64,000 nucleotides of DNA, from NCBI RefSeq assembly GCF_020921035.1, contig NC_063154.1, positions 868,001 through 932,000 on the forward strand, in the 5' to 3' direction. The notes beneath the pieces are model-generated. The model was not told the origin of the DNA and made no database searches. It saw nothing but the letters and a program-made list of their open reading frames with translations. This document shows positions 3,865-59,693 of the stretch, piece by piece; the stretch's first letter is position 1; each line of letters starts with the position of its first letter. Position numbers and translations under genes: made by a program. This DNA comes from Rhodamnia argentea (lineage: Eukaryota > Streptophyta > Magnoliopsida > Myrtales > Myrtaceae).

Positions 3865-4160
3865 GCCAATTGCTTGTTCATCTGACCAGCACTCTTAAGC
3901 TTTTCTTTGGATCATCTCTCGGCCGAGCCTCGTTTCTCTAGCCAAATTCCCTTTTTGTGTCGAGTGATTGAGGGATTAATTTTCACGCACATGACTAAAT
4001 TTATCTCGGCACTTCGTCGAAAATGGGCCGTTCAACTTGGAATTAGTCGATCTGTGGAAAGCTATTTCCTCGTGATCTAACTCTATCAAGTTACCGTCTA
4101 GGAGGAAGATGGTATATTTTTTTTCAAATGTGGTTATTAAAACTACGAAAAGAGGAACTC
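3865..4160. repeat. Internal repeat, unit 2
   Basis: This second occurrence of the 3005-3330 unit shares TTGCTTGTTCATCTG at its start, GGAAAGCTATTTCCTCGTG near 4055 and AAACTACGAAAAGAGG near 4140. Copy B has only one counterpart, so the extra unit arose within copy A or was lost from B. Confidence 0.65.
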
Positions 4161-4579
4161 AGACAAGAATGTAAGAGAGCAAGATTGATCTTTGGAGTTT
4201 TTTTTTTTTTTTTTATCGATCTTCCTTTAAACGAGGGGGTAATGGGTAGAGGGTGCACCAAGTTGACAATTGGTGGAGATTTAAACGGGCTTCTCTACTT
4301 TCTGTCCCCAGAATTTTCTTTCTTGGTTGAGAGCAAGATTGAGAATATAACGGGAATTATATACTTGTAATTCATGTGTTGATGTTAGTCAAGGAAATAT
4401 ACACTTATAATTATGAAATTCCTCCTAAGTTTGTTGAGAGTTAATTTCACATGCAATGGCAAAAATCCAATGAGTCACACCAGATCTTGCCGTGTGTATC
4501 GATTCAGAGCTGCTAAACTTCACAACTATGGCTAGTTTGCCTCCATTCGTGGTGCACATTTGCATGCGTGCATGTGTGC

Positions 4580-5018
4580 AATTGTCAAGGACCGAAGAGC
4601 ATCACATCATCAATCCAAAGGAACGTTGCATCATCGATCCAAAGAGAGCTCATCGAAACCGTTAAAGGGACTCAATCTCTACCATCGATTTTGGGTGACA
4701 AGGATTGACGATCTCAACTGTCGAATCGGGTTAATCTCCATCGTTGGATTAAGGTGACGAGGATCAATTAGATCAAGTGAATCTCCACCATCGGATCAAC
4801 TAGATAAGGATTGACATTCTCTACCGTTAGATTGTATAGTAGATCAATCATTGTAATTCGAAGGACTCTTGTATAAATAGGAGAGCCCTCCTCATTTGTA
4901 TCGTTCACTTCTTTAAGCAATACAAATATTCTAGAGCTTCACTCTACTTAAGAATTCCCTTCGCTGATTCGGGCGATTCACGATCTAATCATGATAAAGA
5001 ATCAATCCGTGATAGATG
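4580..5018 (+). mobile_element. Solo-LTR-like insertion in copy A
   Basis: About 440 bp here has no counterpart in copy B, although the flanks (GTGTGCA on the left, GATGCACACTTTTT on the right) align with GTGCATGCTTTTGTC near 7164. Inside are imperfect repeats of an ATCRATCCAAAG / CATCGGATCAA type. Near 4872 there is a promoter-like block, TTGTATAAATAGGAGAGCCC, followed about 40 bp later by AAGCAATACAAATATTC, the layout of U3-R in plant LTRs. No coding sequence, primer-binding site or second LTR is visible, so a solo LTR or small TRIM is the likely reading. The exact ends are uncertain. Confidence 0.5.
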
Positions 5019-5274
5019 CACACTTTTTTTTATGGAAAAAAAAAACCAGTGCATAAGTGATTGACATGGAAAAAGACTTATATTTAATGAAAAACGGATA
5101 CAATAATCGGACAAAGTTGTTTAGCTAATCGGCATCTTTATCAATCTCTAAATTTCGGACATATTCTCATATTGTACAGGTAACGCCTTCTTATTCCAAC
5201 AAATCCCCGAATTTTCCTTTTTCTATAGCCCATTTACAGGTGTTATTTTAACTATTTATTTATTTATTTATTTA

Positions 5275-53275: not shown

Positions 53276-53644
53276 TTAACTACTATGGAGCGAAAAGGTA
53301 GGACCCTAAATTGTAGTTTTCACATTTAACATCCTTACCCGAGGTGTGAATTCTTTGGGGAAAAGAAAGGTCAACTATGAAAGAGAACATAAAAGTTGGT
53401 TTTGTGCCTAACTATGATTAATTATTGCATAATGTTTTGTGCCTAACTATGATTAATAATTGCAGCCTCCACTGTGAGTTGACTTTGATAATTATTGCCC
53501 ATGGGGCACTTGAGATTTATGCTAGACTTTGATTATTCCTATGGTTCTAATTTTGTAAAACACGGCAAAGTTAATCTGGAAAATACCGAAAACATACCTC
53601 GCTTTTTATTTCACAACTATTGACAATGACATCCCTCAAATTTT

Positions 53645-55104
53645 AGAAAATTTCAAAAAAATGACTTGAAGTGCTCTCATTTTCTCAAATAAGAGCTTGA
53701 AGTGAATTTTATTTCAAATAAGGGCCTGAAATGTTTAAATTATTTCAAAGAAGGGCCCGACCGAATGGCATTTTTATCATTTACTTTTTTGAATTTTTTT
53801 TTCTATTTTTTTTTTTTTGCATGTTCTTTTCTATTTTTCTTTTTTGTTATTTCCTTCCCCTCCCCTCCCCAGGCTATGGTCAGCTTCAGGCAATGGAGCT
53901 CGCGATGGTGTTAGGTGCTCACAGCAGTGGACTCAAGGTGGCCGGCGTTGGTGCATACCAATTGTTGCCCTTGGCGATGACCCCGACTTTCGACTGGAAT
54001 TTGAGAAACAAGGCAAGAAATTGTGGCTCGGATTTGGACCGAACACCACCACGAACAGTGGCTCCTTTCTTTTTTTTTCTTTGGTTTTTTCCCTTAATTT
54101 CGTCGGCCAACCAGGCCACTGGTGAGGGCTGGGAAACCTCACTTAGGGCCGTCGAGGTGAGGCCTCCCTTGACGGCCTCGAGGGATGGCCTCACCCTGCC
54201 CAGGTGTAGCAGGGGAGGCCACCCTCATCGGCCACGGCAAGGTGAGCCCTTGCCCAGATCTAGAGAGGGCTTGCCTCGTGGCTATCGAGGGCGCCTCATT
54301 TATGTATGAATTCAAACGAAAATCAAGTGAATTAGGAGATTCAGATGAGGTTTCTGAAATCGTGTCGTTCAAAAGGTTCAATTCACCAAAATCAAAGCGT
54401 TCGTGAGAGGAATTGCAGGTAAAGCCAAGAAATTCGTCGAAGAAGATGACGAGGGGGATAGAGAATGTTTGTGTCTGAAGGATAAAGTATTCGACGTTCT
54501 AGCGCTAAGAAAGATGGTGAAGATCGAGAGGCGGAGAGCGATCGCAGCGTCTATGGAGCTTGAGAAGAGCGGATTGCGGCCGCGTCGACGTTGGATGAAG
54601 CGATGTCCCTGATGCTACGACTGCGAAGCGAAAAGAGCTTGATCAAGATGAGAGCCAATCAGGATCGCCAGCTGGCGAAGCAAAGCAGCAGTACAACTAG
54701 GAAGTGATCAAGCCGCTCCGATGGATGGCGACGAGCCATGAGTCGCGGAGGAGAGCGTCGGAAGGTCGGTTGAGGTCAGGCAGACAGAGGGTCAGTTGAG
54801 GATGCGCGTGAGTAGCAAGGGCTCGAGCGGCGATGAAGGCGAGGGTTGTTCGACGGTGGTACGAGGAATGGAGATGGGATGAGGAAGAAGGAGAGGCCCA
54901 GGAAAAAACCAAAGGACAAAAGGGAAAAAATAGAAAAGAAGAAAATGAAAATAATAAATAATAAAAGTAAATGATAAAAATGCCCTTAATTATGTCATTA
55001 TTTAAAACAAAGAGAGCAATCTAGGCCCTTATTCGAAACAGAATTCACTTCATGCTCTTATTTAATAAAATGAGGACACTTCATGCCTTTATTTGAAATT
55101 TTCT
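53645..55104. mobile_element. Pack-MULE-like element with captured gene fragment
   Basis: Long inverted arms of about 150 bp start AGAAAATTTCAAA on the left (53645) and, inverted, at the right end (55104). Both arms continue through CATGAAGTG/CTTGAAGTG, AATAAGAGC and GGCATTTTTATCATTTACTTT. An exact 11-bp direct repeat, CCTCAAATTTT, flanks the element at 53634-53644 and 55105-55115; this is the target-duplication length typical of Mutator-like elements. No transposase is present. The interior holds GC-rich sequence (about 53870-54300) and a broken DUF593 coding segment. These features together meet the usual description of a Pack-MULE. Confidence 0.8.
54297..54705 (+). pseudogene. Captured fragment of a GTD-binding (DUF593) protein gene
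   Basis: Frame-shifted conceptual translation shows VFDVLALRKMVKIERRRA and AASMELEK in one frame, then in the next frame AAASTLDEAMSLMLRLRSEK and SLIKMRANQDRQLAKQ. This is the coiled-coil signature of the GTD-binding domain, also called the zein-binding or myosin-binding domain, found in plant myosin receptor-like proteins. A one-base deletion at about 54568 separates the two parts. A second break near 54403 separates an upstream Ser/Asp-rich stretch. There is no start, the rest of the gene is missing, and the fragment lies wholly inside the 53645-55104 element. It cannot make the normal protein. Confidence 0.75.
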
Positions 55105-55479
55105 CCTCAAATTTTGAAACTACAAGTCTGCACCCTCACCCTCGAAAAATTGCACATTTTTACACAATATTGTTGTTTTTCTTTTCAAAAGTACCTTTAC
55201 CAATATTTTCCCATTTTCCAACATACACACCCCGGCAAACCCCCTAAAGGCCCTCACTTAGGCACCACATGCACTTCGTCGTTGCCGCCTCCGATCACTC
55301 ACCCCCACTCCACCACCATGAACCACCAGCTCCGGGGGACCTCGATCACTTGTTGTTGACTCCACTGTTGAAGTTTGTTTGAAAAACAAATAAAATATTA
55401 CCTTTTTGCATCCCATATAGGATGAAAAGAAGAGGGCAATTCATTTTATTAGTTAGAAGGTTAACATTATCTTTCAAAG

Positions 55480-56272: not shown

Positions 56273-57337
56273 ATGAACCAGGATATGGTGAAATTGGACC
56301 GGTTCGATGGCAACAATTTCGTTATTTGGAGAGACAAGATGATGTTTCTCCTCACCGCCCCGAGGATTTCCTATATCCTCGACCCCAATTTTATGCCTAT
56401 AGAGGATCCGGTGCCTACCACTGAAGGAGGAGAACCTAGTACGGAAGATGTTGAGAGGGTCAACAAGGAGAGGAAGAAACGTGAAGAAGATGAATTGCTT
56501 TATCGATGCCATATACCGAATACGTTATCCGATCGTCTCTATGACTTGTTCACCGAGATGAAGTATGCTAGAGAAATATGAAATGCGCTCGACTTCAAGT
56601 ATAACGTGGAGGAGCAAGGTACGAACAAATATCTGATCGCTAAGTATTTTGATTTCAAGTTTGTTGATACTAAACCCTTGTCAGAGCAAGTCCACCAATT
56701 GTAAGTCTTGGTCAATAAAATTCATGCTCTAAAGATAGATATTCCAAAATCTTTTCAAGTTGGAGCAATTATTGCAAAATTACTTCCGAGCTGGAAAGAT
56801 TATGGAAAAAGGATCTTGCATAAATCTGAGGACATCACTTTGGATCAAATTCAAAAATATCTTCGCATTAAGGAAGAGTCACGTTTATGTGATAAATCTG
56901 TTTTATATGATACCAAAGTGAATTCTGTGGAGGGAAATGGATTTCAATCCAAAACACACCAAAACTTCAAACGCAAGAGAGGGCAGAATTTTAAGAAACC
57001 ACAAAAGAAGAAAAAAGGTTGTTACTTTATTTGTGGCAAGGAGGGTCACTATACAAATGAGTGCAAACACCGCAAGAGCACATTCAAGGACAAGAATACT
57101 TCAACAGTTAAGGCAGATGCAAATATGGTTGAAGAGAACTACGTGGCCATGGTTTCAACCAAGTTTTCGAATTTGAAAATTTCCGAAAAGGTTAAGGATT
57201 CTGTGGCCATGATTTCTAAAGTCAATTCTGCCATGGTTAAATTTACTTGGTGGGTTGATTCTAGTGCAACTGTGCACATATGCAAGAATCGATCAATGTT
57301 CAAGCACTTTGAAGAGATTGTTGAAGTACATTGTTAA
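56273..57337 (+). pseudogene. Decayed Ty1/copia gag and start of protease
   Basis: The reading frame resembles a copia gag (UBN2-type) region: VKLDRFDGNNFVIWRDKMMF near the start, then LLPSWKDYGKRILHK, LDQIQKYLRIKEESR, a CCHC-like knuckle CYFICGKEGHYTNEC and a protease start, WWVDSSATVHICKN. It is broken by stops at about 56578 and 56702 and ends at a stop at 57335-57337. The knuckle has one residue too many between its first cysteines (CX3C instead of CX2C), and the protease site reads DSS instead of DSG. There is no integrase, reverse transcriptase or RNase H after it. This is a dead fragment of a plant LTR retrotransposon. Confidence 0.8.
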
Positions 57338-58245: not shown

Positions 58246-58910
58246 ATTACGAAAATAGGAGAAAAACCACCGCTCCGTACTTTTTTGGTTTTTTTTGGGT
58301 CGAAACCACTCGAGACTTGAGGGGCCATTAATTAATTGATTTCCTATTAGTCAAAGCCTGAGGTGGCGAATGGTTGAAGCATCACGCTCAGAAAAAGATC
58401 TTCCTTTTTTCGCATAAATCTCGAATCTTGATGCCATACGATACAGGATAAACTTGCGTTTCTCGCTTTTTGATAGGGATTGGTCCCGTCATTTTGCACC
58501 CACTTGAAGAAGCTCGGATTCTTCTCTGCAGGGGATTAGGTACTTCAGATAAAAGTCTGTTCACATTTGTCGAATTGCCTTGTTTCTGGGGTTTTATCCC
58601 TGGTTGGGGTCGCACAAAATCGACCCTTTTCTTGATATATACGATTTGATCGATCGTGATGAAGATGGGCAATCGGTATATTACGTTCTGTTTCTGTCGT
58701 TCTGGTCCTTTGCATATGTTCTTGGGTTGTAATGGCTCTGGCTGAAAAGGGTCTGCGTCTTAGCAGGAATTGCAGAGGTCTGTCTATTCAGTTCAGTTCT
58801 TTGGATGTTCAGGATTTCTGAAAGCCTGGATACACTGCGGTTGTAGACGAAGTTTTGTTCTTGACAGCTTATAGGGCTCCTCTTGAAGCATTTGAAGGGA
58901 GGACAAGGAC
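58246..58910 (+). promoter_or_regulatory. Upstream region and leader of the bZIP gene
   Basis: This is a less AT-rich stretch directly before the bZIP start. A possible leader-intron acceptor, GGAATTGCAG|AGG, lies near 58773. The transcript start is not determinable. Confidence 0.3.
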
Positions 58911-59693
58911 ATGGATGATGGGGAGGTGGAGGCTTCGGATCATGTCCTGTTACCGAATGTCGACTCTTCGAGCAATCTCCAGAGCTCAGCCTCTGTGGAC
59001 TCTTTCTTTGACGAGTTTTTGAAAAATACTAGGACTTGCACTCACACTCACACATGCAATCCTCCTGGTCCAGACGCTGCTCACACTCACACATGCTACC
59101 ACACCCACACCCAAATGTTCTCGTCCGAAGACGATGAAAGGTGCAATGGGAAAAAGCCGTTCTCGAAGGTGAAAAGGCCTGCAGGTAATAGAGAGGCAGT
59201 GAGGAAGTACAGGGAGAAAAAGAAGGCTCACACAGCTTACTTAGAGGAGGAAGTCCAGAAATTGCGTATGTTGAATCAGCAATTGGTTAGAAAATTGCAG
59301 GTTCAGGCATTTCTCGAAGCTGAGGTCATAAGGCTTAGAAGCCTTGTGGTAGACCTCAGAGGTAAAATTGAAAATGAGTTAGGTGCTATCCCCTTTCAGA
59401 AGCCTTGCAATTCTTCGTCTATTAAGGAAGGTGATTGTGGGGTCCAGTCTGGCAGTGGACTGGTCGGGCTACGGTGTTCGACTGAGTTACTGTGCTTTCA
59501 TCCTCACACGGGCTCGTCGTCTCTAGCAGGTGTCGGCAGGAGCGATGATACTATGGTCTTGTGGGGCGGACAAAACTGCCAGCGAGTAATTGGGGATTGT
59601 CAGGTCAAGGCAAATGTTGGCATGAATTCTGATGTACACAATTCGAACACGGTCGAAAATATCGTGTCAACCACTTCTCAAGTCGAACAATAG
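58911..59693 (+). CDS. F-group bZIP transcription factor (bZIP19/23/24 type)
   Basis: A single coding exon encodes 260 residues starting MDDGEVEASDH. A Cys/His-rich zinc-sensor motif, CTHTHTCNPPGPDAAHTHTC followed by YHTHT, lies at about 43-67. The basic region NREAVRKYREKKKA (93-106) lacks the common NxxSAxxSR spacing but matches the F-group NREAVRKYREKKKA form. The zipper begins at L111, L118 and L125 and then weakens. In Arabidopsis, bZIP19 and bZIP23 bind zinc directly through this motif and switch on ZIP transporter genes under zinc deficiency; bZIP24 acts in salt response. The HTAYLEEEV segment and the FQKPCNSSS...KEGDCG stretch look nearer to bZIP24 as I recall it, while the N-terminal MDDGE resembles bZIP19/23, so orthology is open. 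The motif appears intact. Confidence 0.92.
   Translation: MDDGEVEASDHVLLPNVDSSSNLQSSASVDSFFDEFLKNTRTCTHTHTCNPPGPDAAHTHTCYHTHTQMFSSEDDERCNGKKPFSKVKRPAGNREAVRKYREKKKAHTAYLEEEVQKLRMLNQQLVRKLQVQAFLEAEVIRLRSLVVDLRGKIENELGAIPFQKPCNSSSIKEGDCGVQSGSGLVGLRCSTELLCFHPHTGSSSLAGVGRSDDTMVLWGGQNCQRVIGDCQVKANVGMNSDVHNSNTVENIVSTTSQVEQ

What the first reader, a model, noticed from the sequence alone, without database searches (positions are those of the whole stretch)
53634..55115. Pack-MULE-like transposon carrying a GTD-binding (DUF593) gene fragment
The element has about 150-bp inverted arms, an exact 11-bp flanking direct repeat (CCTCAAATTTT) and no transposase, yet its interior reads as the coiled-coil of a myosin-receptor-type DUF593 protein with a one-base deletion. 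Exact target duplication and clear arm similarity suggest the insertion is fairly recent. Capture of this domain would be a new case of transposon-driven exon shuffling and could produce small RNAs against the parent gene.
Basis: partly seen in the sequence, partly recalled or inferred. Interest (0 to 1): 0.75.

Follow-up and report, generated by a model that had tools for sequence, protein, structure and literature searches.

The report
Old two-gene Pack-MULE jumping element
A decayed jumping-DNA element in a plant chromosome carries broken copies of parts of two plant genes, an example of a well-known way that plant transposons pick up and move host gene pieces.

Summary
Window 53644-55105 is a 1,462-bp non-autonomous Mutator-like element with ~145-bp inverted arms. 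By family comparison its target duplication is 9 bp (CTCAAATTT); the reported 11 bp adds one chance match per side. A TIR motif of its family occurs 2,344 times genome-wide (reversed control 0), and a 6.7-kb element with the same TIRs encodes a MuDR-type transposase broken by a stop. A sister copy on C6 shares TIRs, both captures and a frame-breaking deletion. Branch counts fit decay without coding constraint in the element and constraint in the gene. 'Fairly recent' is not supported: focal-sister K2P is 0.178, the largest of six same-interior pairs compared. Small-RNA silencing of the parent is untested; two exact matches of at least 21 nt remain (25 and 35 nt). Verdict: a well-evidenced new member of a known kind (Pack-MULE).

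The parts
53635..53643 (.). left 9-bp target site duplication CTCAAATTT
   Evidence: exact match to 55106-55114; boundary placed by the family TIR end GGGAAAATTTC
53644..53793 (+). left terminal inverted repeat with internal ~30-bp repeat units
   Evidence: BLAST of the arms, repeats, 88% to the 150-nt consensus of 26 arms
53947..54044 (-). captured fragment 1: decayed antisense exon, with intron-side bases, of the nuclear NdhN gene (chloroplast NDH subunit N)
   Evidence: 79% over 98 bp to C8:9147627-9147724; sister 85% over 110 bp, running past the inferred exon edge; the neighbouring C8 exon matches PF11909 and the captured exon matches PF11909 and NdhN chains 9grx_N, 7eu3_N, 7wfg_N
54045..54302 (.). 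GC-rich filler of unknown origin
   Evidence: outside the sister element, nine dispersed places match parts of 54065-54277 at 70-87% over 54-211 query bases
54303..54894 (+). captured fragment 2: DUF593 (Zein-binding) gene fragment homologous to parent CDS ~301-935 of 1,017, frame broken
   Evidence: PF04576 E 3.7e-9 on 54564-54707; 81% gapped to C11:18580491-18581045; indel list; right end by alignment
54956..55105 (-). right terminal inverted repeat
   Evidence: 83% to the TIR consensus
55106..55114 (.). right 9-bp target site duplication CTCAAATTT
   Evidence: exact copy of 53635-53643

Best explanation
This is a non-autonomous Mutator-like transposon of the Pack-MULE kind, moved in trans by a MuDR-type transposase that recognises its TIRs. 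Before it split from its sister copy on C6, the ancestral element had taken up genomic DNA from two host genes: an NdhN exon with intron edges, placed antisense, and about 590 bp of a single-frame DUF593 gene, placed sense relative to the left arm. It then transposed to at least two sites, making 9-bp target duplications, and decayed. Shown: TIRs, duplications, a sibling family, a TIR-matched element with MuDR-type transposase domains, both parent loci, a sister with both captures and a shared frame break. Inferred: movement in trans, DNA-level capture, capture before the sister split, absence of coding constraint. Not shown: any transcript, small RNA or effect on the parent genes.
For: TIRs and duplications; a duplication with at most one mismatch in 16 of 17 elements, the focal one included (boundaries left free, lengths 7-12), and in 13 of 14 further ones; exact and at least 9 bp in 9 and 10 of these. 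Family size. TIR-matched element L057 with exact TSD TTAATTAAT and DBD_Tnp_Mut, MULE and SWIM domains. DUF593 parent. NdhN parent. Sister. Changes at codon positions 1/2/3, three-way comparison: parent 2/1/11, element 14/8/11. GC 0.51 inside against 0.28 at the ends.
Against: L028 and L051b have no duplication that passed. The one TIR-matched element found with transposase domains has a stop inside that frame, so a working partner is not shown. The C11 gene lacks about 30 nt that the copy L011 carries and of which the element seems to keep about 19 nt, so the direct donor was an older or other version. In the smaller four-way comparison the element's own changes are 4/2/6, too few to prove absence of constraint; pairwise dN/dS to the parent is 0.24. 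The joined flanks match nowhere else, so no empty site was seen.
Confidence: 0.96

Rival explanations
1. An in-place DUF593 pseudogene or segmental duplicate that happens to lie between two unrelated repeats; no capture by a transposon.
For: A truncated DUF593 copy without long TIRs exists on C11 (L011), so copies can arise in other ways.
Against: The sister on C6 has the same TIRs, the same two fragments in the same order and its own exact 9-bp duplication TAAAATGAA; the focal duplication is exact.
Confidence: 0.02
2. The element is a functional regulatory locus: transcribed from a TIR, it gives small RNAs that dampen the DUF593 parent (or NdhN).
For: Maize Pack-MULEs and other capturing elements are described as siRNA reservoirs that can act on donor genes (PMC13317346, passages). 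The focal copy keeps exact runs of 35 and 25 nt to the parent CDS (20 windows of 21 nt, 14 of 24 nt), and the sister keeps a 22-nt run to the NdhN locus. The two captures lie in opposite orientations, so a transcript from either arm would be antisense to one parent.
Against: The focal copy has no exact run above 14 nt to NdhN, and the sister none of 21 nt to the DUF593 CDS. No transcript or small-RNA data were available.
Confidence: 0.08
3. The fragments were captured as processed RNA copies rather than as genomic DNA.
For: The DUF593 parent is a single open frame, so its fragment cannot tell DNA from RNA capture.
Against: The NdhN homology runs past both inferred exon edges into intron-side bases, most clearly in the sister (110 bp). 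The exon edges are inferred from splice-site bases and protein matches, not from transcripts.
Confidence: 0.04

Closest known systems
Pack-MULEs (rice, maize, Arabidopsis, tomato; passages of PMC8903248 and PMC3310237)
   Same: Long TIRs, 9-bp duplications, no transposase seen inside, captured gene fragments (in known cases sometimes from more than one locus), siblings with different interiors.
   Different: The captured genes (NdhN exon + DUF593) and the host plant, unnamed here. The TIRs carry ~30-bp internal repeat units, unlike the whole-TIR tandem duplications of PMC3310237.
MuDR/Mutator superfamily of DNA transposons
   Same: The TIR family includes a 6.7-kb element with DBD_Tnp_Mut, MULE and SWIM domains.
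   Different: No transposase was seen in the focal element; movement in trans is inferred.

Membership tests
Pack-MULE | long terminal inverted repeats (typically 100-500 bp, PMC3310237 passage) | tested here: met
   about 144 bp, 78%
Pack-MULE | 9-11 bp target site duplication (PMC3310237 passage) | tested here: met
   exact in the focal copy; with at most one mismatch in 16 of 17 elements (focal included) and 13 of 14 further ones; three of these are 8 bp only
Pack-MULE | host gene fragment with a parent gene elsewhere in the genome | tested here: met
   DUF593 gene on C11; NdhN gene on C8
Pack-MULE | no transposase in the element itself | tested here: met
   longest of 33 stop-to-stop frames is 195 aa; 5 of the 33 given to Pfam, no transposase match
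Mutator (MuDR-type) superfamily | TIRs shared with an element encoding a Mutator-type transposase | tested here: met
   L057, C3:8703714-8710416: same TIRs, exact 9-bp duplication, PF03108 + PF10551 in one frame and PF04434 in the next, separated by a stop
Mutator (MuDR-type) superfamily | transposition activity in trans | not testable with these tools
   needs accessions or an assay; only dispersed siblings are seen
MyoB myosin receptor (DUF593) | parent protein binds myosin XI through DUF593 | not testable with these tools
   parent has PF04576 at 170-259 of 338 aa; PMC5181578 (passages) reports that binding differs among DUF593 proteins, FL1 not binding

The most novel reading that the evidence does not exclude
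The chimera is transcribed from its TIRs; because the two captured pieces lie in opposite orientations, transcripts from either arm are antisense to one parent gene, and small RNAs from the remaining 25- and 35-nt exact matches still tune the DUF593 parent.
Probability: 0.05. Interest if true: 0.5.

Novelty: new member of a known kind. Interest (0 to 1): 0.3.

Why it matters
It is a well-documented gene capture: both parent loci, a sister copy, the TIR family and a relative carrying transposase domains are in one genome. Elements with the same TIRs carry at least two further host-gene-like sequences (LysM receptor ectodomain, GH17 glucanase), so the family could serve to study how MULEs in this plant choose and join gene pieces. 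The kind itself is long known (Jiang et al. 2004, seen as a reference in PMC13317346), so this adds an example and not a principle.

Tried and rejected
Within-window search for siblings or donors gave, besides the element's own arms, only short weak matches, mostly of its A/T-rich stretches. The joined-flank query for an empty site elsewhere hit only the locus itself. L011, a truncated DUF593 copy on C11, has no long inverted repeats; I do not count it as a family element. Low pairwise dN/dS between element and parent (0.24) first looked like coding constraint on the element; branch counts place the constraint on the parent; no formal test was run. L058 holds two separate short elements, at 88-1341 and 4112-5104, and no longer one. 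Two frames for the captured NdhN exon were given in the wrong frame and matched nothing; the right frame was run. The origin of 54045-54302 was not found. Donor genes for the LysM siblings and the PF11909 genome search did not complete.

Rows dropped before counts: of 18 sibling loci L009 and L012-L028, L013 and L020 were left out of the duplication test (L013 shows only a short second arm and its place was refetched as L042; L020 has two arms in the same direction). Of L042-L056, L052 and L056 were left out because a full second arm was not found. L015 and L017 share their flanks and are probably one insertion later duplicated, yet count as two. Two wrong-orientation alignments (L022-L048, L050-L051) were discarded for the right orientation. 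Pfam was run on 40 frames from 21 sibling elements, not on every frame; matches above cut-off came from 4 of 21 elements (L022, L024, L048, L045). That no transposase hit listed lies within 10 kb of a TIR place was checked by eye; L057 was found through the TIR places, of which 100 of 2,344 were listed.

Full report
Place. The window is C5:868001-932000 of an unnamed assembly of 346,658,060 bases in 74 contigs. The gene families found point to a plant (inference); the species was not identified.

Observation. At 53634-55115 there are two inverted arms of about 144 bp (78%) and an exact 11-bp direct repeat. Sibling elements end in GGGAAAATTTC or near it, mostly with 9-bp duplications. By that rule the focal element is 53644-55105 (1,462 bp), its ends read TAGAAAATTTC and GAGAAAATTTC, and its duplication is CTCAAATTT.

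Family. A 22-nt TIR motif with up to two mismatches occurs 1,168 + 1,176 times in the genome, against 0 + 0 for the reversed pattern; an arm can hold more than one unit, so this is not an element count. Duplications with at most one mismatch were found in 16 of 17 elements including the focal one (boundaries left free, lengths 7-12, so lenient) and in 13 of 14 further ones. They are exact and at least 9 bp in 9 and 10 of these. L028 and L051b have none. Interiors of siblings differ while the TIRs are shared. A 6,703-bp element on C3 (L057) has the same TIRs, an exact TSD TTAATTAAT and the domains PF03108, PF10551 and PF04434, in two frames separated by a stop. MULE transposase domains are common in this genome (150 scored matches of 474 candidates). 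The family is therefore Mutator-like and the focal element a non-autonomous member.

Captured gene 1, DUF593. The frame 54564-54707 hits PF04576. The genome has 13 PF04576 matches: ten in open frames of 264-537 aa and three fragments (focal, the C6 sister, and L011 on C11). The nearest intact gene is at C11:18580491-18581045, a 338-aa frame (L010:5347-4331, minus) with PF04576 at 170-259 (E 4.1e-25) and three hydrophobic N-terminal stretches. The captured piece matches CDS ~301-935, 86% identical over 524 aligned bases. The C11 gene lacks about 30 nt that L011 carries and of which the element seems to keep about 19 nt, so the true source was an older or other version of this gene. The parent is 33-44% identical in protein to the other nine DUF593 frames, but 74% over 39 aa to the focal fragment, so the lineage of origin is clear.

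Captured gene 2, NdhN. 53947-54044 matches C8:9147627-9147724, 79% over 98 bp; the sister matches 85% over 110 bp. On the C8 minus strand a neighbouring exon hits PF11909 NdhN (E 8.1e-21). The captured exon itself hits PF11909 (E 1.2e-5, 25.5 bits, cut-off 25) and chloroplast NdhN chains 9grx_N, 7eu3_N and 7wfg_N (E 7.5e-13 to 8.4e-13). The homology runs beyond the inferred splice edges, which points to DNA-level capture. It lies antisense to the DUF593 piece.

Sister and order of events. The C6 copy (L009:2111-3354) carries the same TIRs, both captures in the same order, its own 9-bp duplication, and the same one-base deletion at CDS 572. The captures and that frame break therefore predate the split of the two copies (inference by parsimony). 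Focal-sister K2P is 0.178 over 1,190 sites; five other same-interior pairs give 0.030 (L050-L051), 0.043 (L015-L019), 0.103 (L014-L016), 0.110 (L022-L024) and 0.110 (L022-L048). This argues against 'fairly recent' for the element lineage, although the exact duplication leaves the date of this insertion open.

Selection. Three-way counts at codon positions 1/2/3 give 2/1/11 for the parent, 14/8/11 for the element and 9/5/9 for L011. In the four-way comparison with the sister, over fewer sites, they are parent 2/0/9, element 4/2/6, sister 6/5/5, L011 3/3/4. This fits constraint on the parent and none on the copies; no formal test was run. Pairwise dN/dS is 0.24 (element-parent) and 0.45 (element-sister). 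Of changes unique to one copy, C>T or G>A make up 10 of 12 in the focal copy, 10 of 16 in the sister, 4 of 10 in L011 and 2 of 11 in the parent, as expected for methylated DNA (inference).

Small RNAs. Exact runs shared with the DUF593 CDS are 25 nt (54324-54348) and 35 nt (54511-54545), the others being under 18 nt; the focal copy has no run above 14 nt to the NdhN locus. The sister's longest runs are 20 nt (DUF593) and 22 nt (NdhN). A silencing effect was not tested.

Empty site. The joined flanks match nowhere else in the genome, so no paralogous empty site is available.

Literature. Passages of PMC8903248, PMC13317346, PMC3310237 and PMC5181578 were read; other papers were seen in listings only. 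In one search none of the 10 papers joined Pack-MULE with DUF593, zein-binding or GTD-binding; one held Pack-MULE and 'floury' once each. Pack-MULE with Myrtaceae gave 0 papers; with Eucalyptus 4, one mention each. None of the 10 of 23 papers listed joined Pack-MULE with NdhN. Only an open-licence library was searched.

Noticed in passing
L022:587-2437 (C5), L024:582-2450 (C8), L048:281-2118 (C8): Three siblings with the same TIRs carry a LysM NFP/LYK-type receptor ectodomain fragment (PF23457, E 7.2e-21, 1.5e-24, 1.7e-24); L022 also has a PMEI match below cut-off. Donor genes not found because the searches did not complete.
   Followed up: partly
L045:8461-8958 (C10, near 2.18 Mb): Sibling element with a glycosyl hydrolase family 17 fragment (PF00332, E 5.1e-16).
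   Followed up: no
L050:8399-9824 and L051:245-1668: A sibling pair of low divergence (K2P 0.030) with HIRAN-like frames below Pfam's cut-off (20.6 and 22.0 bits against 24.7).
   Followed up: no
L011:4741-5302 (C11:19861240-19861801): Truncated, decaying copy of the same DUF593 gene without long inverted repeats; how it arose is unknown.
   Followed up: partly
L015 (C1:10556608-10557830) and L017 (C1:10470736-10471933): Two siblings about 86 kb apart show the same flanking bases on both sides as far as printed, so one insertion was probably copied by a segmental duplication.
   Followed up: no
window 56705-57337 and 58896-59693: By eye: a decayed Copia-gag-like frame and a bZIP-like frame downstream of the element; neither was tested.
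   Followed up: no
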